Source: Tridacna crocea (Eukaryota; Mollusca; Bivalvia; Cardiida; Cardiidae). Taken from it: a stretch of DNA of 64,000 nt. The notes below the pieces were generated by a model. The model was not told the DNA's origin, searched no databases, and worked only from the letters and a program-made list of their open reading frames with translations. The translations under genes and the position numbers were made by a program. Shown piece by piece: positions 1-62,865 of this stretch (position 1 is its first letter; each line of letters opens with the position of its first letter). The DNA lies in assembly GCA_943736015.1 (NCBI GenBank), contig OX031056.1:63825277-63889276 (forward strand), in the 5' to 3' direction.

Positions 1-490
1 GCACTCCCCCTCAATGAGATCTATCCACCCATGAAATTTCGTAACCCTAGCTAGTATAGTTTTGGAGATATGCTCCGGACAAAATTCAAGTATGAAAAAC
101 AACAAAGGGCAATAACTCAAAAATTAAGCAAGAAAGAGTTATGATTCTTGTGCACTGCACTCCCCCTTGATGAGATCTATCCACCCATGAAATTTTATAA
201 CCCTAGCTAGTATAGTTTTGGAGATATGCTCCGGACAAAATTCAAGTATGAAAAACAACAAAGGGCAATAACTCAAAAATTAAGCGAGCAAGAGTTATGA
301 TTCCTGTGCACTGCACTCCGCCTCAATGAGATCTATCCACCCATGAAATTTGATAACCCTAGCTTGTATAGTTTTGGAGATATGCTCCGGACAAAGAACT
401 GGACGCCGCCTGCCCGCCCGCCCGCCCGCCCGTCCGCCCACCACGGGTGATCCCATAATACGTCCCGTCTTCGACGGGCGTATAAAAAGG
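1..490 (+). repeat. Family A tandem-repeat element, right end (about 156-bp units)
   Basis: Two and a half copies of a unit with 'tgagatctatccaccc', 'gttttggagatatgctccgg' and 'aagggcaataactcaaaaa' recur every ~156 bp. They are followed at 397-490 by an end module: a CCCG-rich run, then 'cgtcttcgacgggcgtataa'. The end module is the inverted counterpart of the start module seen at 5099 (shared ATACGCCCGTC). The array runs off the left edge. Confidence 0.85.
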
Positions 491-15900: not shown

Positions 15901-18900
15901 TTTGCATTAAGCCCCTTTTTTCCATGGCACGGGGTCAAATTGAAAATCCGGGAAAATATATCAGCGCCTTACCCTAAGGAGTTCATACATGAAGTTTTAT
16001 CCAATTTGGTCCAAGGGTTGTGGAGAAATCGCTTCGGACGGACGGACGGACAGACGAAGCGGCGACTATATGCTCTCCCTTCGGGCAGCATAATAAATCC
16101 ACCTATGAGGTTTCAAGATGATACCTGAAATACTCTTTGAGTTATGCTCCGGGCAAAAATTAAGTATGAAAATCAACAAAGAGCAATAACTCCAAAAATA
16201 TGATGGGCAGAGTTATGGTGCTTCTGCAGTGCACTTCTCCTTAATGAGATCTATCCACCTATCAGGTTTCAAGATGATACCTGAAATACTTTTAGAGTTA
16301 TGCTCTGGACAAAAATTAAGTATGAAAATCAACAAAGGGCAATAACTCCATAAATATGATTTAGGCAGAGTTATGGTTCTTGGGCACTGCACTTCTCCTT
16401 AATGAGATCTATCTACCTAAGTAGTTTCAAGATGATACCTGAAGTACTTTTAGAGTTATGCTCCGCACAAAAAATGAGTTCGAAAATCAACAAGAGGCTA
16501 TAACTCCAAAAATATGATATGCAGAGTTATGGTTCTTCAGCAATGAACTTCTCCTTAATGAGATTAATCCACCTATGACGTTTCAAGGTGATACTTGAAA
16601 TACTTTATGAGTTATGCTCCGGACAAAAATTAAGTATGAAAATCAACAAAGGGCAATAACTCCAAAAAGATGATGGGCAGAGTTATGGTACTTGTGCACT
16701 GCACTTCTCCTTAATGAGATTAATCCACCTATAAGGTTTCAAGGTGATGCCTGAAATTCTTTTTGAGTTACGCTCCGGACAAAAATTAAGTATGAAAATC
16801 AACAAAGGGCAAAAACTCCAAAAATATGACGGGCAGAGTTATGGTTCTTTGCCCTGCACTTCTTGTTTATGTGATCTATCCACCTATGAGGTTTCAAGAT
16901 GATACCTGAAATACTTTTTGAGTTATGCTCCGGACAAAAATTAAGTATGAAAATCAACAAAGGGCAATAACTCTAAAAATATGATGGGCAGGGTTATGAT
17001 TCTTGTGCACTGCACTTCTCCTTAATGAGATCTATCTACCTATGTAGTTTCAAGATGATATACTTTTTGAGTTATGCTCCGGACAAAAATGTGGTCTACG
17101 GACCGACCGAGGCGACCGACGAGTTTAAACCAATATACCCCCACTTCTTCAAAGGGGGGCATAATTATTTGCAGAAGACAAAATAAATGTGACTGAAAAT
17201 TGGAAATTTGTTTTGTGAAGGATAGAAAACATTGTGGAACAAGAGCTTCGCAGAGCGGCGCATATACGCCCAACGGGGATTGTCGGTGAAATGAGTTGCA
17301 TTGACGGATGGGCCATGAATGTAGAGTGGTTATTCTCCATGATATGTGAAAAAATTGTTAAAGGGCAATAACTAAACAAGAGGGCCAAGATGGCCCTGGA
17401 TCGTTCACCTGAATTTTTGAGATGACCATAGCCTATTTTTTTTTTGAGGTATTGAAACATTGGAACCAAATTTATAATTTTGCTAAGCAATTTTCAAAAG
17501 GTCACCTGTAAAATTCATTTCGAAATCTGACCATCAGTTTCAAAAAGAAGAATTTTTAAGAATTCTTCATTTCTGTATAAGAGCAAGTATCCCCTATCCA
17601 CGAGAGCCATGTTTCTTGATGGATCAAAATTTACGATCAAGTTCTCAAAAGGGTCACCCAAGGAACATTTCGGATTTTTTTTTTTTAAATCTGACCAGGG
17701 GTTTCAGAGAAAAAGAATTTTCAAGAATTTCATCATGTCCATATAGTGCAAGTAGCTCCCATTCACAAGAGCAAGGATCACCCAAGGAACATCCCTGTCA
17801 AATTATTTTAAAATCTGACTAGGGGTTTCATAGAAGAAGAATTTTCAAGAATTTCTTCATTTCCATATAGTGCAAGTAGCCCCATTCACAAGAGCCATGT
17901 TTCTTGATGGATCAAAATTTTGTGAACACTTTTTGAAAAGGGTCATCCAAGGATCATCTCTGTGAAATCATTTCAAAATCTGCCCAGCCGTTTCAGAGAA
18001 GAAGAATTTTTAAGAATTTCTTCATTTCCCTATAGCGCCAATAGTCCCCATTCTCCAGAGCCATGTTTCTTGACCAATCAAAATTTCGCGAAAAACTTTT
18101 GAAAAGGGTCACCCAAGGAACATCCCTGAGGAATTATTTCAAAATCATACCATCGGTTTCAAGAGAAGAAAAATTTTTAAGAATTTTCTCATTTCCCTAT
18201 AGTGCAAGTAGCCCCCATTCACCAGAGCCATGTTTCTTGACCAATCAAAATTTCGCCAAAAATTTTGAAAAGGGTCACCCAAGGAACAACTCTGTGAAAT
18301 TATTTCAAAATCCGAATGTATAGTGCAAGTAGCCCCCCATTCACCAGAGCCACATTTTTTGACGGATCAAAATTTCACGAACACTTTTTGAAAAGGGTCA
18401 CCCAAGGAACAACTTTGTGAAATTATTTCAAAATCCGACCAGCGGTTTCAGAGGAGAAGATTTTTAAAGAATTCCTTGATTTCTGTATGGTGCAAGTAGC
18501 CCCCATTCACCAGAGCCACAATTTTTGACGGATCAAAATTTCACGAACAATTTTGGAGAAGGGTCACCCAAGGAACATATCTGTGAAATAATTCCAAAGT
18601 CCGACCAGCGGTTTCAGAGGAGAAGATTTTTAAAGAATTCCTTGATTTCTGTATAATGCAAGTAGCCCCCATTCACCAGAGCCACAATTTTTGACGGATC
18701 AAAATTTCACGAACAAGTTTGGAAAAGGGTCACCCAAGGAACATATCTGTGAAATAATTCCAAAATCCGACCAGCGGTTTCAGAGGAGAAGATTTTTAAA
18801 GAATTTGCTAAAAAATTCCATTGGGTTGCCATGGCAACCAGAGTTTTTGACGGAATCAAATTCTGTGAACAATTCTTTTTAAAGAGGACCTCCCAAGGAA

Positions 18901-21900
18901 CATTCCTGCCAAGTTTGGTCCAAATTGGCCAAGCGGTTTTAATAGGAGGAGTTGATGTTTAAAGAATTGTTGACGACGCACGACTGACACCCAGTGACCC
19001 TAAAAGCTCCCCTTGAGCACGTTGTGCTTAGGTGAGCTAAAAAATATGGGTTGCAAAGTTACAAAGTTTGTGAATTGCTCTTATCCACAAGCTGTTCTAT
19101 CAGTCTTTGAAGGTTCAAGATCATATCTTTTATATTTTAGAAATTATAGCCCAGACGAACATTCAAAGTGAAAAGGGCAATAACTCAAAAAGAAGGATAG
19201 CACAGTTATGATTCTTGTGCAATGCACTTCTTCATAATGTGTTCTATTAATCTTTGAAGTTTCAAGATGATGGATTTTGAAGTTTGGAAGTTATGGTCTT
19301 TACAAAAATTCAAACTGAAAATTAAACAAGATGGCCCTGGAACACTCACCTGAATTTTTGAGATGACCATAGCCTATTTTTTTCTTGAGGTATTGAAATA
19401 TAGGAACCAAATTTATAATTTTGCCAAACAATTTTCAAAAGGTCACCTGTAAAAGTCATTTCGAAATCTGACCATCAGTTTCAAAAAGAAGAATCTTTAA
19501 GAATTCTTCATTTCTGTATACAAGCAAGTAGCCCCCATCCACGAGAGCCATGTTTCTTGATGGATCAAAATTTACAAACAAGTTTTGAAAAGGGTCACCC
19601 AAGGAACATTATGGAAGATTTCTTTTAAAATCCGACCAGGGGTTTCAGAGAAAGAGAATTTTCAAGAATTTCATCATGTCCGTATAGTGCAAGTAGCCCC
19701 CATTCACAAGAGCCATGTTTCATGACGGATCAAAATTATATGTACATTTTTTGAAAAGGGCCACCCAAGGAACATCTCTGTGAAATTATTTTAAAATCTG
19801 ACCAGCGGTTTCAGAGAAGAATTTTCAAGAATTTCTTCATTTCCATATAGTGCAAGTAGCCCCCATTCACCAGAGCCATGTTTCTTGACCTATCAAAATT
19901 TTGTGAACAATTTTTAACAAGAGGGCCAAGATGGCCCTGGATCGCTCACCTGAATTTTTGAGATGACCATAGTCTTTTTTTTTTTTTGAGGTACTGAAAC
20001 ATTGGAACCAAATTTATAATTTTGCCAAGCAATTTTCAAAAGGTCACCTGTAAAAGTCATTTAGAAATCTGACCATCAGTTTCAAAAAGAAGAATTTTTA
20101 AGAATTCTTCATTTCTGTATAAGAGCAAGTAGCCCCCATCCATGAGAGCCATGTTTCTTGATGGATCAAAATTTACAAACAAGTTTTGAAAAGGGTCACC
20201 CAAGGAACATCTCTCTGAAATTATTTCAAAATCTGACCATGGGTTTCAGAGAAAAGAGAATATTAAAGAATTTCATCATGACCGTTAAGTGCATGTAGCC
20301 CCCATTCACAAGAGCCATGTTTCTTGACGGATCAAAATTATATGTACAGCTTTTGGAAAGGGTCACCCAGAGAACATCTCTGTCAGATTATTTTAAAATC
20401 TGACCACGGGTTTCAGAGAAGAAGAATTTTCAAGAATTTCTTCATTTCCATTTAGTGCAAGTAGCCCCCATTCACTAGAGCCATGTTTCTTGGCCAATCA
20501 AAATTTCGCGAACAATTTTAGAAAAGGGTCACCCAAGGAACATCTCTGTAAAATTTTTTCAAAATCTGTCCAGCCATTTCAGAGAAGAAGAATTTTCAAG
20601 AATTTCTTCATTTCTGTATAGTGCAAGTAGCCCCCATTCACCAGAGCCATGTTTCTTGACCAATCAAAATTTCGCAAACACTTTTTTGAAAAGGGTCACC
20701 CATGGAACAACTCTGTGAAATTATTTCAAAATTTAACCAGCTGTTTCAGAGAAGAATTTTCAAGAATTTCTTCATTTCTGTATAGTGCAAGAAGCCCCCA
20801 TTCACCAGAGCCATGTTTCTTGACCAATCAAAATTTCGCGAACAATTTTTTAAAAGGGTCACCCAAGGAACAACTCTGTGAAATTATTTCAAAATCTGAC
20901 CAGCGGTTTCAGAGAAGAAGATTTTTTAAGAATTCCTTCATTTCTGTATAGTGCAAGAAGCCCCCATTCACCAGAGCCACATTTTTTGACAGATCAAAAT
21001 TTCACGAACAATTTTTGAAAAGGGTCACCCAAGGAACAAGTCTGTGAAATTATTTCAAAATCTAACCAGCTGTTTCAGAGAAGAAGAATTTTTAAGTATT
21101 TCTTCATTTCTGTATAGTGCAAGAAGCCCCCATTCACCAGAGCCATGTTTCTTGACCAATCAAAATTTCGCGAACAATTCTTTAAAAGGGTCACCCATGG
21201 AACAACTCTGTGAAATTATTTCAAAATCTGACCAGCGGTTTCAGAGAAGAAGATTTTTTAAGAATTCCTTCATTTCTGTATAGTGCAAGAAGCCCCCATT
21301 CACCAGAGCCACATTTTTTGACGGATCAAAATTTCACGAACAATTTTTGAAAAGGGTCACCCAAGGAACATATCTTTGAAATCATTTCAAAATCTGACCA
21401 GCGGTTTCAGAGGAGAAGATTTTTAAAGAATTCCTTCATTTCTGTATAGTGCAAGAAGCCCCCATTCACCAGAGCCACAATTTTTGAGGAATCAAAATTT
21501 CACGAACAATTTTTGAAAAGGGTCACCCAAGGAACATATCTGTGAAATCATTTCAAAATCCGACCAGCGGTTTCAGAGGAGAAGATTTTTAAAGAATTTG
21601 CTAAAAAATTCCATTTGGTTGCCATGGCAACCAGAGTTTTTGATGGAATCAAATTCTGTGAACAATTTTTAAAGAGGACCTCCCAAGGAACATTCCTGCC
21701 AAGTTTGGTCCAAATCCGCCCAGCGGTTTAGGAGGAGTTGATGTTTAAAGAATTGTTGACGACGCACGACGGACGACGGAGGACGCACGACGCACGACGG
21801 ACGACAGACGACGGACACCGGGTGATCCTAAAAGCTCCCCTTGAGCACGTTGTGCTCAGGTGAGCTAAAAAGGGTCACCCAAAGAACATCCCTGAGAAAT

Positions 21901-24900
21901 TATTTCAAAATCTGACCAGCGGTTTCAGAGAAGAAGATATTTTAAGAATTCCTTTTTTTTTGTATAGTGCATGTAGCCCCCATTCACCAGAGCCACATTA
22001 TTGACGGATCAAAATTTCACAAACAATTCTTGAAAAGGGTCACCCAAGAAACAACTCTGACCGGCAGTTTCAGAGAAGGAGATTTTTTAAGAATTCCTTC
22101 ATTTCTGTATAGTGCAAGTAGCCCCCATTCACCAGAGCCACATTTTTTGACAAATCAAAATTTCACAAACAGATTTTGAAAAAGGTCACCCAGGAAACAA
22201 CTCTGTGAAAAAAGGGCCACAATTTTTGACGAATCAAAATTTTACGAACAATTTTTGAAAAGGGTCATCCAAGGAAAATATCTGTGAAATTATTTCTAAA
22301 TCTGACCAGCGGTTTCAGAGAAGAAGATTTTTTAGGAATTCCTTCATTTCTGTATAGTGCAAGTAGCCCCCATTCACCAGAGCCACATTTTTTGACGGAT
22401 CAAAATTTCACGAACAATTTTTGAAAAGGGTCACCCAAGGAACATATCTGTGAAATTATTTCAAAATCCGACCAGCGTTTTCTGAGGAGAAGATTTTCAA
22501 AGAATTCCTTGATTTATGTATAGTGCAAGTAGCCCCCATTCACCAGAGCCACAATTTTTGACGGATCAAAATTTCACGAACAAGTTTGAAAAAGGGTCAT
22601 GCAAGGAACATATCTGTGAAATTAATTCAAAATCCGACCAGCGGTTTCAGAGGAGAAGATTTTTAAAGAATTTGCTAAAAAATTCCATTTCGTTGCCATG
22701 GCAACCAGAGTTTTTGACGGAATCAAATTCTGTGAACAATTTTTAAAGAGAACCTCCCAAGGAACATTCCTGCCAAGTTTGGTCCAAATTGGCCAAGAGG
22801 TTTTGGAGGAGTTGATGTTTAAAGAATTGTTGACGACGCACGACGGACACCCAGTGACCCTTAAAGCTCCCCTTGAGCACGTTGTGCTCAGGTGAGCTAA
22901 TAAAAATGATTGTTACACTTCTAATGCATAAAGGTGAGTATCTAGAATTTTCGTCTCCCGCCAAATTAGAAAATATTTATATCATTGAAATTTATATCAT
23001 AAAACAATACAAATCATCAATAATTAAGAATCATAAAATTACAAAAAAAAAAAAATTTTTTTTTTGATGGTATTCCCTTACTCTTTACCACACAATCCCG
23101 ACTTTTAATGACCCTGAGAAAGAAACCCTTTGAAAATATTGTGAAAAAGGAGAAAATGCTGGTAACCAGCATTTTTTCCTTTTTTCCACAAAGTTTTCTA
23201 CTCTTTCCAAATCAAATTTCAATTTTTGATTCACATTTATTTTGTCGTCTGCAAATGCTTTCAACTTGGACTAGTCCAAAATTTTGTCGTGTGGTAAAGA
23301 GTTAAAAGACTATGTAGCCTCTTAAGCTGTTTTTAGATTTCCCGCCAAAAATAAAAAAACATTGTGGGAATGTTAAGTGACTGGCACCTGACTAATGACG
23401 CTGAAATTCCGAACATGTAATTATTTTCCATAATGTTTTCTTTGGATGCTATGTTTGTAGCTTCCTCTGTATATTTCCAGTGTGTAAATGAGCAAGTTGC
23501 TCATGTAAAAATAGACCGTGTTTCCCATCGGTGTTAACCTGGGCTGTAGTAAATCTCTAACTTCTCTTGTTGTTGGATGATTTTCGACTATTGGGGTTTT
23601 ATGAATGAAAATTATAAGCCTTTTGGAGAATAAGGATGATTTTTTTGTATACTTGTAAAATGTTTGTCCAAAAATCTGAAGGCCCACCTTTAATTACTGG
23701 AAGTTTACGGGCCTATTTCAGTTTAATGAATTAAAAGTGTTTTAGCATGGTATTAATGAAATTATCATAAATTATCTGGATAGCTCCAATGAAAAGGCAA
23801 GCATGCAAAAATAAAGAAATCAGAAAATTCTCTCCTCTGATAAGTGAGTTGAATGACATGCTGGGTATACATAAATAGGGGCCATGCTCCGAGTACAAGG
23901 TATAATGTATCAGCAAAAAACATCAACTCAGGAGAGAAAGTGCTGTCCATGCAGGTGAACTTTGGATGAAACTGTTGGCTGTTGGTTAACCCTTTATTCC
24001 ATGTATACTCATTTCTACGCGCTGCTCGTAGGAGCCTTTGGAAAACATTGTGGCAAAAGGTGAAATTGCTCATGACTAGCAATTTCACCTTTTACCACAA
24101 TGTTTTCTATGCTATTAAAAGGTGTCATATATGCATAAGAAACAGCTTCATCCTTGCTGTTATTTAGGGCAAATTAGAGATACCATATAAATGTCTTATG
24201 GGGTAAAGGGTTAATTTTCTGCATACCAAAGCCCCAGTTTAGCTCATGATTAAGTTGTTTGTTTGTTGAATGGATGTTATGGATCCACAACAAGTGATGA
24301 CTGGCTTTGTATAAGGGATCACAGAAATGCTTTAGTTCCCCTTTTGCCAGAGCCTGGATCACATCTAAATTCATGATGTTTTACATTTTACGTCTGTTTA
24401 ATCCTTTTCCAAACAATCTCTGCTTTTTACAACCCTGAAAAAGAAGCCTTCTGAAAACATCATGGGAAAAGCAGAAAATGCTGTAAACCAGCATTTTGTT
24501 CTTTTCCCTCAATGTTTTCTACCCTCCTACAACAAATTTCAATTCATGAGTCATGTTAATTTTGTCGTCTGCAAATTCTTTCAATTTGGACCAGTCTAAA
24601 ATTTTTTCATTTGGTAAAGAGTTAAAAAACCTTTTAACTTGTTATAGTCCAACATACCATATTTACTAAAGAAGAAACATTCAGGCATTTTAGTCATGTC
24701 AAATTCGTGGAGAAATTCACAGTCATCTCCCTTTTTACACAGTCCCCTCAACCAGTGTTTGCAAACAACTGTTCTGTCACCCTTCACGTGTCTGAATGGA
24801 CATGCTGTGGCTTTACTGCATCCTCCTGTTCCTTGGAAAAATGTACAAATTGCTGCTCCGGATTCTGAAACATACAAATAATCCATTCTTTACCCATTAT

Positions 24901-28422: not shown

Positions 28423-28670
28423 TACGTGCGCACGCAGTAGCTAATACGTGCGCACGTATTAGTTATTACGTGCGCACGCAGTAGCTAATACGTGCGCACG
28501 TATTAACTAATACGTGCGCACGCAGTAGCTATTACGTGCGCACGTAATAACTAATACGTGCGCACGTATTAACTAATACGTGCGCACGTAATAGCTACTG
28601 CGTGCGCACGCAGTAGCTAATACGTGCGCACGTATTAGTTATTACGTGCGCACGTAATAATCCACCAATC
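28423..28670. repeat. Left array of 22-bp palindromes (11 copies)
   Basis: Eleven units centred on ACGTGCGCACG recur every 22 bp. Most read ATACGTGCGCACGTAT or a variant with GCAGTAG on one side. Each core is self-complementary and strictly alternates purine and pyrimidine. The first unit is part of the terminal inverted repeat. Confidence 0.95.
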
Positions 28671-39591: not shown

Positions 39592-39664
39592 TGTGAAAAT
39601 GCAGCGCGACTGATATTTGTTTACCAGAGTGACGTCATAGGGGTAGAGGTCTGATTGGTCGATT

Positions 39665-39814
39665 AATACGTGGGCACGTAATAGTTATTACGTGCGCACG
39701 TATTAGTTAATACGTGCGCACGTATTAGCTAATACGTGCGCACGCAATAGTATTACGTGCGCACGTATTAGTTATTACGTGGGCACGTATTAACTACTGC
39801 GTGCGCACGTAGTA
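39665..39814. repeat. Right array of 22-bp palindromes (7 copies)
   Basis: Seven units, inverted counterparts of the left array. Two units carry TGGGCACG in place of TGCGCACG, breaking their symmetry. One spacing is 20 bp. Confidence 0.93.
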
Positions 39815-40231: not shown

Positions 40232-40343
40232 TAACCCATTACCACATACTACCTACTTCTGACGACCCTGATAAAGAAGCCTTTAGAAAACATTGTGGGA
40301 AAAGGAGAAAATGCTGGTAACTAGCAATTTTTGTCGTTCCCAC
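40232..40343. mobile_element. P1 MITE, left half joined to the 39-bp satellite
   Basis: TTAACCCATTACCACATACT through the left hairpin arm and centre ('atgctggtaactagcaattt'). The satellite begins where the right arm should continue. Confidence 0.75.
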
Positions 40344-41592
40344 ATGAAGACTCTAAAGAGTTTAGGTACATACACAACAGAAATGGAGACTCTAAAGAGT
40401 TAAGGTACATACACAACAGATATGACGATCCTAAAGAGTAAAGGTACATACACAACAGAAATGAAGACTCTAAAGAGTTAAGGTACATACACAACAGATA
40501 TGACGATCCTAAAGAGTAAAGGTACATACACAACAGAAATGAAGACTCTACGGAGTTAAGGTACATACACAACAGCTGAGAGGACTCTAAAGAGTAAAGG
40601 TACATATGCAACGGATATGACGATCCTAAAGAGTAAAGGTACATACAGAACAGAAATGAAGACTCTAAAGAGTAAAGGTACATACGCAGCTGATATGACG
40701 ATCCTAAAGAGTAAAGATACATACAGAAAAGAAATGAAGACTCTAAAGAGTAAAGGTACATACGCAGCTGATACGACAATCCTAAAGAGTAAAGGTACAT
40801 ACAGAACAGAAATGAAGACTTTAAAGAGTTAAGGTACGAACGCAACGGATACGACGATCCTAAAGAGTAAAGGTACATACGCAACGGATATGAAGGCTCT
40901 AAAGAGTAAAGGTATATACAGAACAGAAATGAAGACTCTAAGGAGTAAAGGTACATACGCAGCGGATATGACGATCCTAAAGAGTAAAGGTACATACAGA
41001 ACAGAAATGGAGACTCCAAAGAGTAAAAGTACATACGCAGCGGATATGACGATCCTAAAGAGTAAAGGTACATACAGAACAGAAATGAAGACTCGAAAGA
41101 GTAAAGGTACATACGCAGCGGATATGACGATCCTAAAGAGTAAAGGTACATACAAAACAGAAATGAAGACTCTAAAGAGTAAAGGTACAAACACAACAGC
41201 TGAGAGGACTCTAAAGAGTAAAGGTACATACGCAACGGATATGACGATCCTAAAGAGTAAAGGTACATACAGAACAGAAATGAGGACTCTGAAGAGTTAA
41301 GGTACATACGCAGCGGATATGACGATCCTAAAGAGTAAAGGTACATACAGAACAGAAAAGAAGACTCTAAAGAGTAAAGGTACATACGCAACAGATATGA
41401 CGATTCAAACGAGTAAAGGTACATACAGATCAGAAATGAAGACTCTAAAGAGTTAAGGAACAAACACAACAGCTGTGAGGATTCTAAAGAGTTAAGGTAC
41501 ATACGCAACAGATATGACGATCCTAAAAAGTAAAGGTACATACAGAACAGAAATGAAGACTCTAAAGAGTAAAGGTACATACGCAGCGGATA
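40344..41592. repeat. 39-bp tandem satellite in 78-bp higher-order units (about 32 monomers)
   Basis: The monomer is (a/g)gactctaaagagtaaagg + tacatacgcaacggatatg-type, alternating with acgatcctaaagagtaaagg + tacatacagaacagaaatg. Because 39 is divisible by three, the minus strand stays open for 419 codons as 13-residue repeats (MYLYSLESSFLFC). The array is best read as noncoding. Confidence 0.92.
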
Positions 41593-41899
41593 TAGTTTAG
41601 TTTAGTTTAAACATATTTTATTTCATATACAATGAAATGGGGTTGGACCACAAGTTCTAACAACTTACAATCGGTCCTTCCCCTACAAGAATGTACAATA
41701 ATGATTTCTACAACAATGGCAAATACAGTAAATACCTTTCCAATAAATGAAAACAAAAATGAAAACGAAAGGAACGGAAAAAAGGGATATTTATAAGGGG
41801 AAAAAGATAAAAGGAAATATGATGGTGCTCTCTGTTAGATGTCTGGTAATATTATCACTGTTACAGTCGATGTAAATTACTTAAAACGTTTGGTATTTT

Positions 41900-42692
41900 T
41901 TATATATATGTCTGGACTTCTTCAAAAAGTAAACAGTTTTGATCAAAAATTAGGTCAGCACTGCCAAACAGTAGTTTATTAATATTTAAAGGATGGAATT
42001 CCCTTGTTGCTCGAAAAAGCGAGATCCTAAAATCTGAATAACGATGGCATTTAAAAAAATAATGCTCAGCATTTTCGACCCCAGTAAGACAATCACACAT
42101 TGGATCCAATCTTAGATGGTTTATATAAAGATCTTCGTTTAGATGGCTACAATTGTTTCTTAACCGTGCATGAAGCACTGAGATATATCTATTACCAATA
42201 CAATAAATATTTGAAATTTTGACTTGCTTATTCTTATCAGAGAATTTGGATTTAAACGAACTATAATATTATTATTATATTATGTTGAACTACTTCTTAT
42301 TTCTTGTTCTAAATTGTTCCAGAGTGAAATTGAAGATGGGATACATGACTTTTGTAAATACTTGTTCTAGTATGTATGTTTTCATAATTTTGGCTGTCTC
42401 TCAGCTGATATTGTGATCTGTTGCCAACTAATGGAGGAATTAATTCTGCAATATATTGTGGGACAAGATTATTAGAAACTTTGTACATAAAACACAACTT
42501 AGAATTTTTCCGTCTTGCCGATAATGTTTCCCAACCACATTCTCGATAAAGATTTTCAAGAGATACTGATCTTGTAAGGCCTGTTACGATTCTTGCAGCT
42601 TCATTTTGTAGTTTGTCAATAGAATCTGAACATGAAGCTGAGCATCCATCCCATACTATAGATGAGTATTCAAGGATAGGTCTTACATACAT
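41900..42692 (-). pseudogene. Retrotransposon C-terminal region, frameshifted
   Basis: 42309-42692 encodes the RT C-terminal helper region (RPILEYSSIVWDGC, LYRECGWETLSARR). 41900-42178 encodes a cysteine/histidine segment (CDCLTGVENAEHYFFKC), typical of CR1/Jockey-group C-termini. At least two indels between 42180 and 42330 separate them. Confidence 0.8.
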
Positions 42693-44305
42693 GTGTAGGA
42701 TAAATAAATTTGGTTTAATGCTGCACGAGTCAGAGTAAATTGAAGTCGACGCATAATATGAATTATTTTGGATGCCGCGTTTAAAGTGTTATTTATATGG
42801 TCATTCCAAAGACCTGAACTACTTAGTGTTATACCAAGATGTTTATGTTGATCTACAATATTAATTCTAGAATTTTCGAAATAAAGTTCTGGCTCACCAT
42901 GATCCTTTCTTGAGGAAAATATAACAGCTTCAGTTTTATTTGGGTTGAAATCGACCAGCCATTGTTTTGCCCATATTGAAACATTTCTTAGGTCATGGTT
43001 TATTATACCCTCAATATCTTGTAGTAATGTAGCTGAATAATAAAGGGAACTGTCATCTGCACATAATCTAGTAAGACTTAATAAGGATTCTGTAATATCA
43101 TTTACATAAATGAGAAACAAAAGAGGTCCAAGTACTGAGCCTTGCGGAACTCCTGCTTTTAAGGGTAGAAAATTAGATTCTAATGCTTGTATTACTACTT
43201 TTTGTTTCCTATTTTCAAGATAACTGTTCAGCCACAGAAGAAGACTGTCACCTATGCCGTTTTCTTTAAGTTTAAATAAAAGACCTTTATGCCATACTCT
43301 GTCAAATGCTTTAGAAATATCGCAAAAAACAATACAAGAGAGTTGGCCGTGATCAATAGCTTGGCATATGTGGTGATATATGTCGACAAGTTGGTAGGTT
43401 GTAGAATGCTTTGGTAAAAATCCAGATTGATATTTATATAGAAGATCATTGGCCACAAGAAAATTATACATATGTTTAAAAATAATTCTTTCAAGAATTT
43501 TACCGCAACTACTTAACAAAGAGACGGGTCTGTAATTAGACGGCAAAGACTTATCACCTTTTTTAAATATAGGTGTGACAATTGCTTTTTTCCAAGACTC
43601 AGGGAAAACCCCTTCCGAGAGGGAAAGATTGTATAATATACAAAGTGGTTCACATATAGAGTTAATACAACCTTTGAGCATTCTATGGCTTATATTATCT
43701 GGACCACTAGCCTTATTAATGTCAATAGAATGAATTATATCCTTTACTTCAGTAATGGTAATTTCGTCTATTACTAGTTGATTTAAGGTTTTAAGTTGAC
43801 ATTCGGGAAGCGTAATCTTATTGTCATTTACTGTTGATATTGATGCAAAGTAGCTGTTTAGACAATTGGTTTTTTCATGAGGAGAAGAATGCCAAATTTT
43901 ATCTCCATTGGGTAATATATCACTCAGAGGTGGAAAACATGAAATAGAGCTGTTCTTTTTGATAAAATGTTTAATAATTTTCCAAAAGCCTTTTTTGTCA
44001 TTACAGTTTAACTCTATCAAGTTTGTTTCCAAGCTTTTATAGAAATTTTCTTTCGCATGTTTTTTCATGTTATTAACATTATTTCTTAAATTCTTATATT
44101 TTGACCAGTCTGTAGATTTCCTAGATGCTTTGGCAGTACGTTTCATTCTGTCCCTTTTTCGGGAGAGTCTTCTGATTGCGTTGTCGTACCATGGCTGATC
44201 ATCAGGTCGAATACATACTTTTTTACATGGGATACACTCTTTGACCAAATCCATAAAAGTCGTAGTAAATAAGTCACATGCTTCATCAAGAGAACGATTG
44301 TGCAA
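42683..44305 (-). CDS. Retrotransposon reverse transcriptase
   Basis: A 540-codon frame, originally continuous with the endonuclease. RT motifs are in order: KASGPDNIS, WKKAIVTPIFKKGDKS, NYRPVSLLSSCGKILERI, SGFLPKHST, VFCDISKAFDRVWH (first catalytic Asp), GVPQGSVLGPLLFLIYVNDI and LCADDSSLYY (catalytic ADD). It ends SYTCM at a frameshift; the chain resumes in another frame as YVRPILEYSSIVWDG. Confidence 0.9.
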   Translation of the reverse strand: MHNRSLDEACDLFTTTFMDLVKECIPCKKVCIRPDDQPWYDNAIRRLSRKRDRMKRTAKASRKSTDWSKYKNLRNNVNNMKKHAKENFYKSLETNLIELNCNDKKGFWKIIKHFIKKNSSISCFPPLSDILPNGDKIWHSSPHEKTNCLNSYFASISTVNDNKITLPECQLKTLNQLVIDEITITEVKDIIHSIDINKASGPDNISHRMLKGCINSICEPLCILYNLSLSEGVFPESWKKAIVTPIFKKGDKSLPSNYRPVSLLSSCGKILERIIFKHMYNFLVANDLLYKYQSGFLPKHSTTYQLVDIYHHICQAIDHGQLSCIVFCDISKAFDRVWHKGLLFKLKENGIGDSLLLWLNSYLENRKQKVVIQALESNFLPLKAGVPQGSVLGPLLFLIYVNDITESLLSLTRLCADDSSLYYSATLLQDIEGIINHDLRNVSIWAKQWLVDFNPNKTEAVIFSSRKDHGEPELYFENSRINIVDQHKHLGITLSSSGLWNDHINNTLNAASKIIHIMRRLQFTLTRAALNQIYLSYTCM

Positions 44306-44337
44306 AATATTCCAATTATAATTTAAAATTTTTTGAT

Positions 44338-45357
44338 TTAATAATTCGTAATTAGCTCTGCTATATAACCAAATTGTTCTTTTGTAGCTAGCTTGGATCT
44401 CATAAAAAAAGGTATAGATACATATGTAGCTGAATGGTCAGTTATTCCTTGTGGTAGTGCAATAGTGCAAGACTCAGAAACTTCCATATCAACAGGAATA
44501 AGAATGGGATCAAGAAGTGCATTCTGTCTGGTAGGAGATTTAATTACATTAATCATTGAATTTAATACCAGAATATCCTTTAAATTATGAAAGTTGTCAT
44601 TAAGTAAGTCCTCGTTTAAATCGCCTAGCATGATTACATTTTTCGATATGTTAAAAGCTGCTTCAATGTTAAGGTTAAAATTTCTAAAAAAATCTTTGTC
44701 TGCTGTTTTGGGGCTATAAAAAGTACCAATCAAATATATGTCAGAATTTACAATGATTTTTACCCAAATGGATTCATTACAATAAGCCTCAAGATCAGTA
44801 ATTCTTGAATGAACAAGATCCTTATTCAAATATACAAGAATCCCACCTCCGTGGCTGGTTCTGTCTTTTCTGTAAGGTTCGTCAAAAGAGTCAGAAAGGT
44901 TCAAAAAATCATTAGTAATAATATAGTTTAAATGCGTTTCTGTGAAACAAATGATATTAAAATCTAGAAATTCATTTCTTATAAAATCCAATTTGTTTCT
45001 TATACTCCTTACATTGCAGTGCAGTATCGATAATAAAAATGCATTTTCTTGTGATATAGGCCCAGGATTAAGTTGTACATCCCCAGCTAGTAAAATGAGT
45101 AGCCATATCACATAGAAGTAAAGAATGAAGTATATTTTTTCTGTCAACTCTTTTCCTCCATTGAATAAAATAGACTTGATATATTGAACTAATTTTTTTA
45201 CCATATATGGTAGATTGCTTAATATGTTTGACCAAATATAGTGATGAACGTTTTTGTAACAGGAATAAACTCTTCCGTGAAACAGACCGATGGACGCTCT
45301 CCATGCAGTCAGGTCATTACCCATTAGGAAGTAAAATGACATGTCCGCAGAGAGCAC
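44338..45357 (-). CDS. Retrotransposon APE-type endonuclease with N-terminal 2A-like motif
   Basis: This 339-codon ORF cuts target DNA for target-primed reverse transcription. Residues ~76-91 are hydrophobic and lead directly into DVQLNPGP (93-100, bases 45058-45081), a 2A-like ribosome-skipping motif with Gln at the usual Glu position. Endonuclease motifs follow in order: LHCNVRSIRNK, CFTETHLN (catalytic Glu), GTFYSP, MLGDLNEDL and the terminal TDHSA (catalytic Asp-His). A 1-bp shift near 44395 breaks the fusion to the RT: the next frame continues sensibly with WLYSRANYELLN. Confidence 0.85.
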   Translation of the reverse strand: MLSADMSFYFLMGNDLTAWRASIGLFHGRVYSCYKNVHHYIWSNILSNLPYMVKKLVQYIKSILFNGGKELTEKIYFILYFYVIWLLILLAGDVQLNPGPISQENAFLLSILHCNVRSIRNKLDFIRNEFLDFNIICFTETHLNYIITNDFLNLSDSFDEPYRKDRTSHGGGILVYLNKDLVHSRITDLEAYCNESIWVKIIVNSDIYLIGTFYSPKTADKDFFRNFNLNIEAAFNISKNVIMLGDLNEDLLNDNFHNLKDILVLNSMINVIKSPTRQNALLDPILIPVDMEVSESCTIALPQGITDHSATYVSIPFFMRSKLATKEQFGYIAELITNY

Positions 45358-45522
45358 CCATCAGGGCTGAATCATTACAAAGATAAGTCACACAGGCACC
45401 ATCATTACTAAAGAGATAAGAAAAACATAAAAAAACATATAACGTATATACAAGAATAAATGAACGTGTACAATTGCAGAGTGACGATATATTGTGATTA
45501 ATTTATTGTGAGATGCATCCTT

Positions 45523-51995: not shown

Positions 51996-53430
51996 AGTAT
52001 CAGACAACACAGAAGATAATATGATAATGTACCGTATAAGTCAATGATCAGATTGGACAAAAATAATAATATAATAGACTGTATAGATTATAGATCAGAT
52101 TGCCCAGAAGATAATAATGAAACGGACTATGTAGATCTAAGATCAGACAGCACACTTAATAATGGAAAATGGACAGTATAGATCAAAGATCAGACTGCAC
52201 AAAGGTAATATAACAATAATTTGCAGTGCAATTATGACATCAGACCGCACAACAGAAAATGAAATAACGGACTTTGCAGATCAAAGATCAGACAACATCA
52301 GATTGGACAAACAATAATGAAATATTGGTCTGTGCGTATCAGATATCAGTCTGCTCAGACAATACTGGAGTAATGGACTGTGCAGATCTAAGATCAGACA
52401 GTAATGAATATAGATCAGATATAAAAATCTGTAATTTACATCTAAGATCAGACTGCGCAGGCAATAATGCAAAATGCATAGCATAGATCAAAGATCAGAC
52501 TGCACAAAACATAATATAATATTTTGCAGTGCAGATCAGAGATGGGACTGCAAGAACCATAATGATAAAAAGGACAGTGCAGATCAGAGATCGGACTGCA
52601 GAGACCATAATGATATAATGGACAGTGCAGATCAGAGATCGGATTGTAGAGACCACAATAATATAATGAACAGTGCAGATCAGAGACCATAATGATATAA
52701 TAGACAGTGCAGATCAGACATCGTACTGCACAGAAAATAATAAAATAATGGTCAACATGGATCAGAGATCAGACTGCACAGACTATAATGAGATAATGGA
52801 CAGTGTGGATCGTAGATCAGACTATATTGACAATATTGAAGTAATGCAATATCAGACTGCTAACATAATAATTAAATAATACACGGTGCAGATCAGAGAT
52901 CAGACAGCACAGACAATATTGAAATAATGGGCAGTGCAGATCAGACATCATATTGCACAGAATATAATGAAATAATGGACAGTGCATATCAAAGATCAGA
53001 CTGCACACACATCATTGAAATATTGAGCTTGGTTCAGACACATTCAATATTGGAGCACAGTGCAGATCAGATACCAGACTGCTCAGACATAAATAAAACC
53101 ATGGACAGTGCAGGTGAAAACAGCAGACTGCTCAGACATTAATGAAACAATGAACAGTGCAGATCAAATATCAGACTGCCAGACATTATTGAAGTATTGA
53201 GCAGTGCTGGTAAAAGATCGGACTGCACAGACATTACTGAAGTGATAAATAGTGCAGTTCAGTGATCAGACTGGACATACAATTATGAGACAATAGACAT
53301 TATCAAATATCTTACTGCTCAGACATTAATGAAACAATGAACAGTGCAGATCAGATATCAGATTGCCAGACATTATTGAAGTATTGAGCAGTGCTGATAA
53401 AAGATCAGACTGCACAGACATTACTGAAGT
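51996..53430. repeat. 48-bp tandem satellite
   Basis: The unit, best preserved at 52545-52700, contains 'cagtgcagatcagagatcgg' and 'actgcagagaccataatgat'. Outer units are diverged (46-60 bp). The length is a multiple of three, so both strands show spurious 16-residue repeats. The GATCAGACTGCACAG core also occurs singly elsewhere in the window. Confidence 0.88.
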
Positions 53431-54590
53431 GAAGTGACGATCCTAAAGAGTAAAGGTACATACAGAACAGAAATGAAGACTCTAAAGAGTAAAGGTACAT
53501 ACGGAACGGATATGACGATCCTAAAGAGTAAAGGTACATACAGAACAGAAATGAAGACTCTAAAGAGTTAAGGTACATACACAACAGATATGACGATCCT
53601 AAAGAGTAAAGGTACATACAAAACAGAAATGAAGACTCTAAAGAGTTAAGGTACAAACACAACAGCTGAGAGGACTCTAAAGAGTAAAGGTACATACGCA
53701 ACGGATATGACGATCCTAAAGAGTAAAGGTACATACAATACAGAAATGAAGACTCTAAAGAGTTAAGGTACATGCGCAACGGATATGACGATCCTAAAGA
53801 GTAAAGGTACACACGGAACGGATTTGACGATCCTAAAGAGTAAAGGTACATACAGAACGGAAATGAAGACTCTAAAGAGTAAAGGTACATACGGAACGGA
53901 TATGGCGATCCTAAAGAGTAAAGGTACATACAGAACGGAAAAGAAGACTCTAAAGAGTAAAGGTACATACGGAACGGATATGGCGATCCTAAAGAGTAAA
54001 GGTACATACAGAACGGAAAAGAAGACTCTAAAGAGTTAAGGTAGGACATGTAGGAACATACAAAACAGAAATGAAGATTCTATAGAGTTTATGTACATAT
54101 AAAACAGAAATGAGTCTAAAGGGATTAGGTACATACACATCGGAAATAAAAGTTTGAAACAACGATGATGACAACGCTAAAGAGATTAGGTACATCAAAA
54201 CACAAATGAACACTTAAAAGATATTAGGCACATACAAAACAGAAATGAAGACTCTAAAGAGTTTAGGTACATACAAAACAGAAATACCTTTAAAGAGAAT
54301 AGGTACATACACAACGGAAATGTTGACTCTTAAGAGATTCTTTGCATACACAGCAGTGTTAAAGATTCTAAAGAGATTAGGTTCATAACAACAATGATGA
54401 CAACGCTAAAAAGATAGGTACATTAAAACAGAAATGAGCACTCTAAAGAGATCAGGTACATACAAAACAGAAATGAAGAAGTCTCTAAAGAGTTTCTAAA
54501 GGTACATACAAAACAGAAATTATTCTAAAGAGATTAGGTACATAGATAACCATAATGCCAACTCTGAAGAGATTAGGCACATAGGCAACA
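53431..54590. repeat. Second 39-bp satellite array
   Basis: Same 39/78-bp unit as 40344-41592. It is regular to 54040 (about 15 monomers), then decayed ('gaagactctaaagagtttag') to about 54590. It abuts the 48-bp satellite directly. Confidence 0.9.
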
Positions 54591-58177: not shown

Positions 58178-58214
58178 TTTTCCCCAACAAAGATAAATCC
58201 AGTGTAATTTGTAA

Positions 58215-58420
58215 TGTTACGGGAGACCACTCCTTCCTGCATGGCATTCTCCCGATTTAAATACAATACCTGGCTACTGCGTCAGGGAGATATCTCTTTG
58301 ACTCAGTGGTTATGGTATTGGCCTTGCGTCCGGGAGTTCGGGGTTCGAACCCCGCTCGGTACCTTATTTCTGCCATGCATTTATTCATTTGTTTCTTTGT
58401 TACGGACTTTGTTCGTAAGA
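58215..58420 (+). repeat. TRIM left LTR
   Basis: TGTTACGGG…CGTAAGA with short imperfect inverted ends. It contains an AT-rich 'gatttaaatacaatac' and a tRNA-like block. Confidence 0.85.
58302..58371 (+). promoter_or_regulatory. tRNA-like Pol III A and B boxes in TRIM LTR1
   Basis: A box TGACTCAGTGG is followed ~45 nt later by B box GGTTCGAACCC. The spacing is tRNA-like, but acceptor-stem pairing is absent, so this is a promoter remnant, not a tRNA gene. The LTR2 copy (58624-58693) reads GGTTCGAATCC, a perfect B-box consensus. Confidence 0.65.
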
Positions 58421-58536
58421 TGGGGGCTCGTCTGGGATTGGCCATTGAGCCATTAATCCCATTTGTTGTCCAAAATTGGACTTCCTACCTAATAAGGCTT
58501 TGAGTCATCAATAAATGATGACTTTAAGAGGGGGTG

Positions 58537-58742
58537 TGTTATGGGAGACCACTCCTTCCTGCATGGCATTCTCCCGATTTAAATACAATACCTGGCTACT
58601 GTGTCAGGGAGATATCTCTTTGACTCAGTGGTTATGGTATTGGCCTTGCGTCCGGGAGTTCGGGGTTCGAATCCCGCTCGGTACCTTATTTCTGCCATGC
58701 ATTTATTCATTTGTTTCTTTGTTACGGACTTTGTTCGTAAGA
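58537..58742 (+). repeat. TRIM right LTR
   Basis: It differs from the left LTR by three C-to-T changes, two of them at CpG sites, suggesting a recent insertion. Confidence 0.85.
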
Positions 58743-59246
58743 GTAAACAACTTACATAGCGACTTCTGTTGAACAGACATGCGCACGCAACATAATTTTG
58801 ATTTTGTACAGTCTGGTTTTCTAACCCTAACGACCGTTTTGTACAAGGTGCCTTTGTCAGCAGTAGATTTCCAAAGTGAACTGCCCTGTAGCATGTCAGA
58901 AATATTGCGATTTCTGCCAAGACATGAGCATTGATGATATCACCATGTTTTGATCTCTGGTGAAGTAGGTCAACAATTATTTACGTTGAAAAGTACACAT
59001 TTGCACGAAATATGATTTAGATATTAACTAATATCAGTTTTTTGCAAAGATTAATCATTTATGTAACAATCCATGCCCATTTTATTAGCTGTAATAGGAA
59101 ATTTTGCTTCAAAGAGTTGTTTGAAAAGATGCTGGTTAAATCATATTAAGATGACCTAAGTGGGTCATCATGTATAGTACTCACATTTTGTCAGGGATCG
59201 ATTAGATAATTCAGCATGGGTATGTATGTTACAACAGTTTTGCATG

Positions 59247-61339: not shown

Positions 61340-62865
61340 TAGCTCACCTGAGCACAACATGCTCAAGGGGAGCTTTTAGGATCACCCGGTGTCCGTCGTG
61401 CGTCATCAACAATTCTTTAAACATCAACTCCTCCTAAACTGATGGGCCAATTTGGACCAAATTCGGCTGGAATGTTCCTTGGGAGGTCCTCTTTCAAATT
61501 CGTTCACAGAATTCAATTCCGTCAAAAACTCTGGTTGCCATGGCAACGAAGTGGAATTTTTTAGGAAATTCTTTAGGAAAATTTTAGGTATTCCTTGGAT
61601 GACCTTTTTCAAAAATTGTTTGTTAAAGTTTGATTCGTTGAGAAACATGGCTCTGGTGAATGGGGACTTCTTGCACTATACAGAAATGAAGAATTTCTTA
61701 AAAATTCTTCTTCTCAGAAACCACTGGTCAGATTTTGAAATAATTTCACAGAGATGTTCCTTGGATAACCCTTTTCAAGATATGTTCGTGAAATTTTGAT
61801 CTGTCAAGAAACATGGCTCTGGTAAATGGGGGTTTATTGCACTATACAGAAATAAAGAAATTCTAAAAAATTCTTCTTCTCTGAAACTGCTGGCCAGATT
61901 TTAAAATAATTTCACAGAAATGTTCCTTGGATGACCCTTTTCAAAAAATGCTCGCGAAATTTTGATCAATCAAGAAACATGGATCTGGTGAATGGGGGCT
62001 TTTTGCACTATACAGAAATGAAGAAATTCTTAAAGATTCTTCTTCTCTGAAACAGTTGGTCAGATTTTGTAATAATTTCACAGAGATTTTCCTTGGATGA
62101 CCCTTTTCAAAAACTGTTTGTGAAATTTTTATCCGTCAAGAAACATGGCTCTGGTGAATCGGGGCTACTTGTGCTATACAGAAATGAAGAAATTCTTAAA
62201 AATTCTTCTTCTCTGAAACAGTTGGTCAGATTTTGAAATAATTTCACAGAGATTTTCCGTGGATGACCCTTTTCAAAAACTGTTTGTGAAATTTTGATTC
62301 GTCTAGAAACATGGCTCTGGTGAATGGGGGCTGCTTGCACTATAGGGCAATGAAGAAATACTTAGAAATTCTTCTCTGAAACAGCTGGTCAGATTTTGGA
62401 AAATTTTCACAGAGATATTCCTTGGGTGACCCTTTTCAAAAATTGTTCGTAAAAATTTGATTCGTCGACAAACATTGCTCTGGTGAATGGGGGCTACTTG
62501 CACTATATGGAAATGAAGAAATTCTTGAAAATTCTTCTTCTCTGAAACAACTAGTCAGATTTGAAAATTGCTTCATGGAAATATTCCTTGAATGACCTTT
62601 TTCAAAATTTGTTCGCGAAATTTTGATAGGTCAAGAAACATGGCTCTGGTGAATGGGGGCTACTTGCACTGTACGGAATTCCTAAAAATTCTTCTTTTCT
62701 GAAACTGCTTGTCAGATTTTGAAAGGCTTTTTACAGGTGACCTATAAAAATTGCTTGGCAAAATAATGATTTTGTTTCCAGTGTTTCAATACCTTCAAAA
62801 AAAAAAGGCTATGGTCCTCTCAAAAATTCAGGTGAGCGATCCAGGGCCATCTTGGGCCTCTTGTT
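61340..62865 (-). mobile_element. Family B element B4 (minus orientation)
   Basis: It starts 'agctcacctgagcacaacat' and ends 'gcgatccagggccatcttgg' + 'gcctcttgtt'. About eight ~160-bp units and the 'gttgccatggcaac' palindrome lie between. It is the reverse of B1-B3. Confidence 0.88.

What the first reader, a model, noticed from the sequence alone, without database searches (positions are those of the whole stretch)
58215..58742. Complete 528-bp TRIM whose LTRs carry tRNA-type Pol III promoter boxes
Seen: two 206-bp LTRs with three differences, an 18-nt PBS complementary to tRNA-Pro with one mismatch, a polypurine tract, a GTAA duplication, and in each LTR an A box (TGACTCAGTGG) and B box (GGTTCGAACCC or AATCC) at tRNA spacing. 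Known: TRIMs are tiny non-coding LTR elements, and the plant TRIM Cassandra carries 5S rRNA promoter sequence in its LTRs. Inference: this is an animal counterpart with a tRNA-type promoter, possibly transcribed by Pol III like a SINE yet copied through an LTR cycle. I know of no described bivalve example.
Basis: partly seen in the sequence, partly recalled or inferred. Interest (0 to 1): 0.88.

Follow-up and report, generated by a model that had tools for sequence, protein, structure and literature searches.

The report
Tiny LTR transposon with tRNA-like promoter
This is one copy of a large, recently active family of very small jumping genes in a mollusc (probably bivalve) genome; each carries a tRNA-like promoter in both of its ends and copies itself by a retrovirus-like cycle, a kind already described in 2024 as Helenus, though this genome also seems to hold molecular fossils of how the copying works.

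Summary
In detail: two 206-bp LTRs with 3 differences, 116-bp internal region, tRNA-Pro PBS, PPT, GTAA duplication, A and B boxes in both LTRs. It is no lone locus: the genome holds 1,701 exact LTR-end/PBS junctions. Of 43 copies analysed, 37 have exact 4-bp duplications and 39 an 18/18 PBS; the host's tRNA-Pro genes match. But bivalve examples are in print: Kojima 2024 named such elements Helenus (4-bp duplications in animals, tRNA-Pro among the primers, 51 bivalve families). So: a new member of a known kind.

Beyond that paper's text: (1) TTTT, the Pol III stop, occurs in 4 of 43 elements but 86 of 86 flanks; 4 runs against 346 expected from composition. (2) Mirror-image copies joined at LTR ~77, 38 R-side against 2 U3-side, place the RNA start near LTR 73, 12 nt before the A box. 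(3) One copy holds 39 nt of tRNA-Pro sequence, 21 more than the PBS. (4) A young Gypsy with the same PBS and a 4-bp duplication is a candidate driver. Pol III use itself is inferred, and a TATA-like box leaves Pol II possible.

The parts
58211..58214 (.). 4-bp target site duplication GTAA, left
   Evidence: sequence; 37 of 43 analysed copies have an exact 4-bp duplication, 0 of 43 a 5-bp one
58215..58420 (+). 5' LTR, 206 bp, TGTTACGG...CGTAAGA
58256..58268 (+). TATA-like TTTAAATACAATA in the 5' LTR (LTR 42-54)
   Evidence: 0.92 identical in five diverged relatives; function inferred
58287..58296 (+). palindrome GAGATATCTC (LTR 73-82); inferred RNA start / end of strong-stop DNA at about its first base
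   Evidence: 38 R-side against 2 U3-side mirror junctions in the genome; three mirror copies read
58299..58309 (+). A box, 5' LTR (LTR 85-95)
58342..58352 (+). B box, 5' LTR (LTR 128-138)
58421..58438 (+). primer binding site for tRNA-Pro (one mismatch in this copy)
   Evidence: 39 of 43 copies 18/18; host tRNA-Pro genes
58421..58536 (+). internal region, 116 bp, non-coding
58526..58536 (+). polypurine tract AAGAGGGGGTG
   Evidence: recurs in the 30 best-matching copies with few changes
58537..58742 (+). 3' LTR, 206 bp
58578..58590 (+). TATA-like box, 3' LTR
   Evidence: same as in the 5' LTR
58609..58618 (+). palindrome GAGATATCTC, 3' LTR
   Evidence: pair I3
58621..58631 (+). A box, 3' LTR
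58664..58674 (+). B box, 3' LTR
58743..58746 (.). 4-bp target site duplication GTAA, right

Best explanation
A member of a large, recently active TRIM family of the Helenus kind (TRIMp3 in Kojima's terms). Shown from sequence: it spreads as a non-coding LTR retrotransposon with 4-bp target duplications, a tRNA-Pro PBS, a PPT, and A/B boxes kept in both LTRs. Supported by fossils in the genome: tRNA-Pro is the real primer, and first-strand (strong-stop) DNA ends near LTR base 73. Inferred: RNA polymerase III starts there under the TATA-like/A/B promoter, reads through the TTTT-free element including both LTRs, and stops in the 3' LTR at an interrupted T tract or at the first TTTT of the flank. 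That RNA has R at both ends; a tRNA-Pro-primed Gypsy supplies reverse transcriptase and integrase in trans.
For: Copies and hallmarks. Boxes in relatives chosen without regard to boxes: at least one LTR in 12 of 14, against 0 of 6 other tRNA-Pro elements and 28 of 2,000 random stretches. Boxes better conserved than the sequence between them: A 0.93, B 0.95 against 0.55-0.75. TTTT in 4 of 43 elements against 86 of 86 flanks; 4 runs against 346 expected from composition, while AAAA is as expected, 43 against 44. No AATAAA or ATTAAA in 86 of 86 LTRs. Primer: host tRNA-Pro genes and 39 nt of tRNA-Pro sequence in copy L068. Strong-stop end. Driver candidate.
Against: No transcription data. The TATA-like box and the inferred start at LTR 73 suit Pol II as well. 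The T-rich LTR tail proposed as a leaky stop is poorly conserved (0.60). Five of 14 PBS-chosen relatives have TTTT in the stretch examined, L081 and L082 between the A and B boxes, though these look old. In L068 the inverted LTR piece runs past LTR 73 to about 57, and L068 lacks a 4-bp duplication. The candidate driver shares only PBS, duplication length and terminal bases with the TRIM. Shuffle tests of TTTT absence on the single element are modest (0.05 by base, 0.007 by dinucleotide; 53 of 1,270 windows of the same size in this 64 kb also lack TTTT).
Confidence: 0.75

Rival explanations
1. Pol II transcribes the element from the TATA-like box, and the tRNA-like block is a passenger from an old SINE insertion into an ancestral LTR, copied along without function.
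For: TATA-like 13-mer 0.92 identical in diverged relatives and 31 nt before the inferred start; no tRNA fold remains.
Against: A and B boxes are kept better than the sequence between them and in 12 of 14 relatives chosen by PBS alone; TTTT is depleted on the sense strand only; no AATAAA or ATTAAA in 86 of 86 LTRs, while 42 of 43 internal regions have AATAAA just upstream of the 3' LTR, where a Pol II transcript would end before R.
Confidence: 0.2
2. The mirror-image junctions come from fold-back at the palindrome in genomic or late DNA, not from strong-stop DNA, so they say nothing about the RNA start.
For: The junction lies on a natural palindrome, and 2 U3-side mirrors exist; some of the 38 may be copies of one event.
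Against: 38 R-side against 2 U3-side (p = 7e-8 with half-word abundance from fetched loci, 133:101); in 3 of 3 copies read the arm ends exactly at the LTR/PBS border, and 2 of 2 testable ones have 4-bp duplications.
Confidence: 0.2
3. It is the published bivalve element biv-TRIM (Satovic et al. 2019) rather than Helenus.
For: Bivalve TRIM with 202-218-bp terminal repeats and tandem arrays.
Against: biv-TRIM has a 77-80-bp internal domain, mostly PPT GGGGAGA and no canonical PBS; here 116 bp, AAGAGGGGGTG and a tRNA-Pro PBS.
Confidence: 0.05
4. A single chance SINE insertion into one LTR before duplication, or copies carried only by some other repeat.
For: Six loci (L006, L007, L011, L013, L018, L025) share flanks and are one insertion spread inside a larger repeat.
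Against: 37 of 43 analysed copies have a 4-bp duplication, with many different sequences; the block is in both LTRs of copies across the genome.
Confidence: 0.01

Closest known systems
Helenus (TRIMp3), Kojima 2024, PMC10886601 (abstract, text parts 1-4 of 6, legends and tables read)
   Same: TRIM under 1 kb; tRNA-like sequence with A and B boxes in the LTRs; PBS and PPT; 4-bp duplications in animals; tRNA-Pro among the bivalve primers; families in bivalves; Gypsy suggested as driver.
   Different: No sequence comparison with his families was possible. TTTT depletion, mirror copies and captured tRNA primer are not mentioned in his main text. Host subclass here unknown; his bivalve hosts are all Pteriomorphia.
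Cassandra (plant TRIM with 5S rRNA sequence)
   Same: Pol III promoter in TRIM LTRs; tandem arrays (passages).
   Different: 5S type promoter with terminators in the LTR; plants; 18-bp terminal redundancy of the RNA. Here a tRNA-type promoter and no TTTT in the LTR.
Ajax (nemertean TRIM with 5S-derived LTR), same paper
   Same: Animal TRIMp3.
   Different: 5S promoter, 5-bp duplications, tRNA-Leu primer.
biv-TRIM, Satovic et al. 2019, PMC6934838 (abstract, text parts 1-2 of 5, passages)
   Same: Bivalve TRIM, similar LTR length, tandem arrays.
   Different: No canonical PBS, shorter internal domain, other PPT; no Pol III promoter described.

Membership tests
Helenus | TRIM: two LTRs, non-coding, shorter than 1,000 bp | tested here: met
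   528 bp, LTRs 206 bp, internal region 116 bp
Helenus | tRNA-derived sequence with A and B boxes in the LTRs | tested here: met
   Boxes in both LTRs; in 12 of 14 relatives chosen by PBS. Similarity to a named tRNA by Censor or tRNAscan-SE was not run; ARAGORN and Rfam find no tRNA
Helenus | PBS and PPT | tested here: met
Helenus | 4-bp target site duplications (animals) | tested here: met
   37 of 43 copies; 0 of 43 with 5 bp
Helenus | sequence similarity to a published Helenus family | not testable with these tools
   Repbase and supplements not available
Helenus | mobilised by a Gypsy element | tested here: inconclusive
   Young Gypsy with the same PBS and 4-bp duplication; no further shared sequence
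TRIMp3 | transcription by RNA polymerase III | not testable with these tools
   Indirect only: boxes, TTTT depletion
Cassandra / Ajax | 5S rRNA sequence in the LTRs | tested here: not met
   No 5S match in Rfam scans of the region and window
biv-TRIM | 77-80-bp internal domain, PPT GGGGAGA in most copies | tested here: not met
   116 bp and AAGAGGGGGTG against the published values

The most novel reading that the evidence does not exclude
An animal LTR element whose genomic RNA is a Pol III read-through transcript: its 5' end, and so the start of R, is set by a tRNA-type promoter 12 nt before the A box; the element is kept free of Pol III stops so that the RNA can cross both LTRs; and the 3' end is set by a leaky T tract or by host DNA outside the element. 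The genome records the intermediates: strong-stop DNA dimers, and tRNA-Pro copied past the PBS up to tRNA base 38.
Probability: 0.5. Interest if true: 0.62.

Novelty: new member of a known kind. Interest (0 to 1): 0.42.

Why it matters
Helenus was proposed from consensus sequences, with Pol III use unproven. This family is young and numerous, the RNA start is predicted to within a few bases, the primer gene is identified and a candidate driver is named. That makes two open questions directly testable: can a Pol III transcript feed an LTR cycle, and how is the terminal repeat of the RNA made without a Pol III stop in the LTR.

Tried and rejected
Single locus or chance SINE insertion: rejected. 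A functional tRNA gene in the LTR: none called. Foldings of the two tRNA-like blocks of the window were about as stable as shuffles (z -0.89 and -0.22; the third sequence of that call, from L010, was on the wrong strand and is disregarded). A partner with the same LTR: of 48 places with the family's PPT and LTR start but another following base, 20 were read and all 20 match the TRIM LTR; L105, which had a different internal sequence, proved an old TRIM with inserts. Gypsy family Y (L084): no open frame over 110 aa in the 6 kb read, decayed. Spread by another repeat: true for one insertion. Host identity: a literature lead (Xylophaga dorsalis, 0.45 Gb) did not fit 1.049 Gb; a protein search gave no names; not resolved.

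Rows dropped: of the 60 loci L001-L060, L032, L038, L051 and L058 had no second LTR by my rule; L031, L033, L035, L036, L043, L052, L054 and L060 failed the start or length rule; L007, L011, L013, L018 and L037 were duplicates by flank; 43 remained. These still include L002 and L003 (overlapping halves of one array with outer flanks ACAT/ACAT), L028 (array) and L025 (same insertion as L006, boundary off by one). L001-L030 are best matches to the window copy and L031-L060 were chosen by B box plus PBS, so box frequencies are biased; one search is the test not biased for boxes. Its 20 places were chosen by hand from 53, mostly those whose last base was T or C. In one search, five of the nine aligned relatives were used; L033, L051, L074 and L081 were left out because their 5' part is truncated or rearranged. 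In one search L077 and L081 count as lacking the pair, but they have an A box and a B box (changed in L077) 66 and 68 nt apart, just beyond the rule.

Full report
OBSERVATION. The 528-bp element is as described. LTRs 58215-58420 and 58537-58742 differ at 3 of 206 positions, the internal region is 116 bp, and GTAA flanks both ends. The PBS has one mismatch to the tRNA-Pro PBS; the next best site in the window has six, and 40 shuffles had a best of five to seven. A and B boxes start 43 nt apart in each LTR; these are the only two exact B-box matches on the + strand of the window, and 0 of 200 shuffles gave a pair. Neither ARAGORN nor Rfam reports a tRNA, so what remains of the tRNA is essentially the promoter.

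FAMILY. A search of the window's own assembly (1.049 Gb, 31 contigs) listed 42 matches at 96-100%, with 40 of 2,876 first-look candidates scored. Exact words give further counts: 3,812 copies of a 21-nt LTR word, 1,701 LTR-end/PBS junctions and 447 B-box-to-PBS matches, each with 0 in the reversed control. The first 100 listed places of the LTR word make 58 loci: 35 pairs and 3 arrays with steps of 316-339 bp, and 20 singles. Of 43 analysed copies 37 have an exact 4-bp duplication and none a 5-bp one; 39 PBSs are 18/18. Seven of 28 full-length copies among the best matches have identical LTRs, two of the seven being halves of one array, so insertion has been recent. The window copy differs from the commonest base at 8 of 528 positions, among them one in the PBS and one in the A box of each LTR.

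BOXES ARE KEPT. The first 60 loci were chosen by similarity or by the B box and are biased. As a test without that bias I read 20 of 53 places chosen by the tRNA-Pro PBS followed by a base that the family rarely has: 14 are TRIM relatives, 6 are other elements. An A+B pair is in the 5' LTR of 11 of 14 and in the 3' LTR of 11 of 14 (in at least one, 12 of 14), in 0 of 6 of the others, and in 28 of 2,000 random host stretches, each of those at the weakest passing score. In five diverged relatives the TATA-like 13-mer, A box and B box are 0.92, 0.93 and 0.95 identical to a family copy, the stretches between and just after them 0.55-0.75, and the LTR ends 0.82 and 0.86 (five sequences, two of them chosen with the B box, so indicative only). 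Some diverged relatives carry about 20-24 extra bases between A and B.

NO POL III STOP INSIDE. The window element has 19 TTT runs and no TTTT. Taken alone this is modest: 0.05 by base shuffle, 0.007 by dinucleotide shuffle, and 53 of 1,270 windows of equal size in the 64 kb also lack TTTT; 0.03 or 0.004 by extension rates. Across copies TTTT is in 4 of 43 elements but in 86 of 86 flanks of equal length. Scaled by base composition, 346 TTTT runs would be expected and 4 are seen, whereas AAAA runs are as expected, 44 and 43. The copies share descent, so 43 is not 43 tests; the point is that the family's source elements lack TTTT on the sense strand only. Read-through of both LTRs needs this. 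The first TTTT after the 3' LTR lies at a median of 61 bp. No LTR (0 of 86) has AATAAA or ATTAAA; 42 of 43 internal regions have AATAAA shortly before the 3' LTR. Against the idea: 5 of 14 PBS-chosen relatives, apparently old, do have TTTT in the stretch examined, L081 and L082 between the boxes, and the T-rich LTR tail that might serve as a leaky stop is poorly conserved (0.60).

FOSSILS OF THE CYCLE. Three loci in hand (L031, L073, L075) carry an inverted half-LTR joined to a normal one at the palindrome GAGATATCTC, LTR 73-82. In all three the inverted arm runs exactly to the LTR/PBS border. L031 and L073 are flanked by 4-bp duplications, TTTT (with the last LTR base changed) and AAAG, both of low complexity; L075 continues into an array and cannot be tested. 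Two minus-strand strong-stop DNAs annealed by their 3' ends would give this. It needs those ends, and so the RNA 5' end, at about LTR 73 (70-76). Genome-wide there are 38 exact R-side mirrors and 2 U3-side mirrors, as expected if strong-stop DNA, which has no U3, is the source. The R-side half-word occurs 5,198 times; the U3 half-word could not be counted genome-wide, and with the ratio in fetched loci (133:101) p is 7e-8, too optimistic if some junctions are copies of one another. LTR 73 is 12 nt before the A box and 31 nt after the start of the TATA-like box, so it fits a tRNA-type Pol III start and a Pol II start alike. A fourth copy (L068) has, in place of its internal region, 39 nt complementary to tRNA-Pro plus CCA, then inverted LTR sequence. 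The word GGTTCAAATCCCGGACGAGCC occurs 7 times in the genome: this copy, four genes called tRNA-Pro(AGG) and two partial ones. The 39 nt go 21 nt beyond the PBS and end at tRNA base 38, next to G37, which in tRNA-Pro is usually m1G, a block to reverse transcription (numbering and modification recalled). The simplest reading is that tRNA-Pro was the primer and was copied past the usual stop. L068 has no 4-bp duplication (CTAG / TGTG), and its inverted LTR piece runs past LTR 73 to about 57, which the strong-stop model does not explain.

DRIVER. Four of the 20 PBS-chosen places belong to one other family. Its copy at C7:41330665-41336935 has 561-bp LTRs without a difference, the duplication AACT, LTR ends TGTTA...GTAACA, the tRNA-Pro PBS after a 5-nt spacer, 12 TTTT runs and no B box in its LTR, and one 1,598-aa open frame with integrase domains (730-902) before reverse transcriptase (1225-1381). 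It is a plausible supplier in trans, in line with Kojima's view that animal Helenus uses Gypsy. No further sequence is shared, and 20 of 48 places with the family's PPT and LTR start gave only TRIM relatives.

KNOWN OR NEW. Kojima 2024 (PMC10886601; parts 1-4 of 6, legends and tables read) defines Helenus by the structural features found here, reports 51 families from five orders of pteriomorph bivalves and names tRNA-Pro among their primers. Cassandra (PMC7215508, passages) is the plant analogue; biv-TRIM (PMC6934838, abstract, parts 1-2 of 5 and passages) differs in internal length, PPT and PBS. Two searches for Helenus or TRIMp3 in the open library showed no second paper on it. TATA, TTTT, transcription start, strong-stop and palindrome do not occur in Kojima's main text, and 'terminator' occurs once, for Cassandra; a listing search on strong-stop, palindrome, inverted LTR and TRIM showed no such report in the 10 of 145 listed. 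So the element is a new member of a known kind; the TTTT depletion and the strong-stop and primer fossils seem new, within the limits of those searches.

SHOWN AND INFERRED. Shown: LTR-type insertion, family size, recent activity, kept boxes, TTTT depletion, tRNA-Pro sequence captured next to a PBS, mirror copies. Inferred: Pol III transcription, RNA start at LTR 73, read-through, the Gypsy driver. Host: a mollusc, probably a bivalve.

Noticed in passing
L085:660-5456 (G000:C7:41331359-41336155): Young Gypsy-type element with integrase domains before reverse transcriptase in one 1,598-aa frame, the order that a passage of PMC6238403 gives for the Gmr1 clade. No tree was made.
   Followed up: partly
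L128 (G000:C6:1349889-1350029): A 3' half of tRNA-Pro beginning at base 38 and ending in a CCA-like tail stands alone in the genome, cut at the same base as the tRNA-Pro piece in L068.
   Followed up: no
L006, L007, L011, L013, L018, L025: Six copies of the TRIM share both flanks or one flank at high identity: one insertion that was spread inside a larger repeat.
   Followed up: no
L077, L081, L082, L038: A diverged TRIM lineage with about 20-24 extra bases, partly hairpin-like, between the A and B boxes.
   Followed up: partly
window 42683-45360 (-): Two open frames that look like a non-LTR retrotransposon (endonuclease-like and reverse-transcriptase-like by eye); the first contains GDVQLNPGP, which resembles a 2A peptide (recalled).
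   Followed up: no
window 40321-41601 and 53405-54079 (-): Arrays of 39/78-bp repeats that stay open as frames of 426 and 224 aa; a 39-bp unit is 13 codons, so the openness may follow from the period.
   Followed up: no
window 1-395, 5164-6183, 12188-13464, 14070-14882, 16097-17090, 17505-22672, 61589-62724: Several arrays of 156-bp and about 166-bp satellites that recall bivalve BIV160 (from memory).
   Followed up: no
window 28423-28659 and 39663-39811: Two arrays of a 22-bp palindromic unit built on TACGTGCGCACGTA.
   Followed up: no
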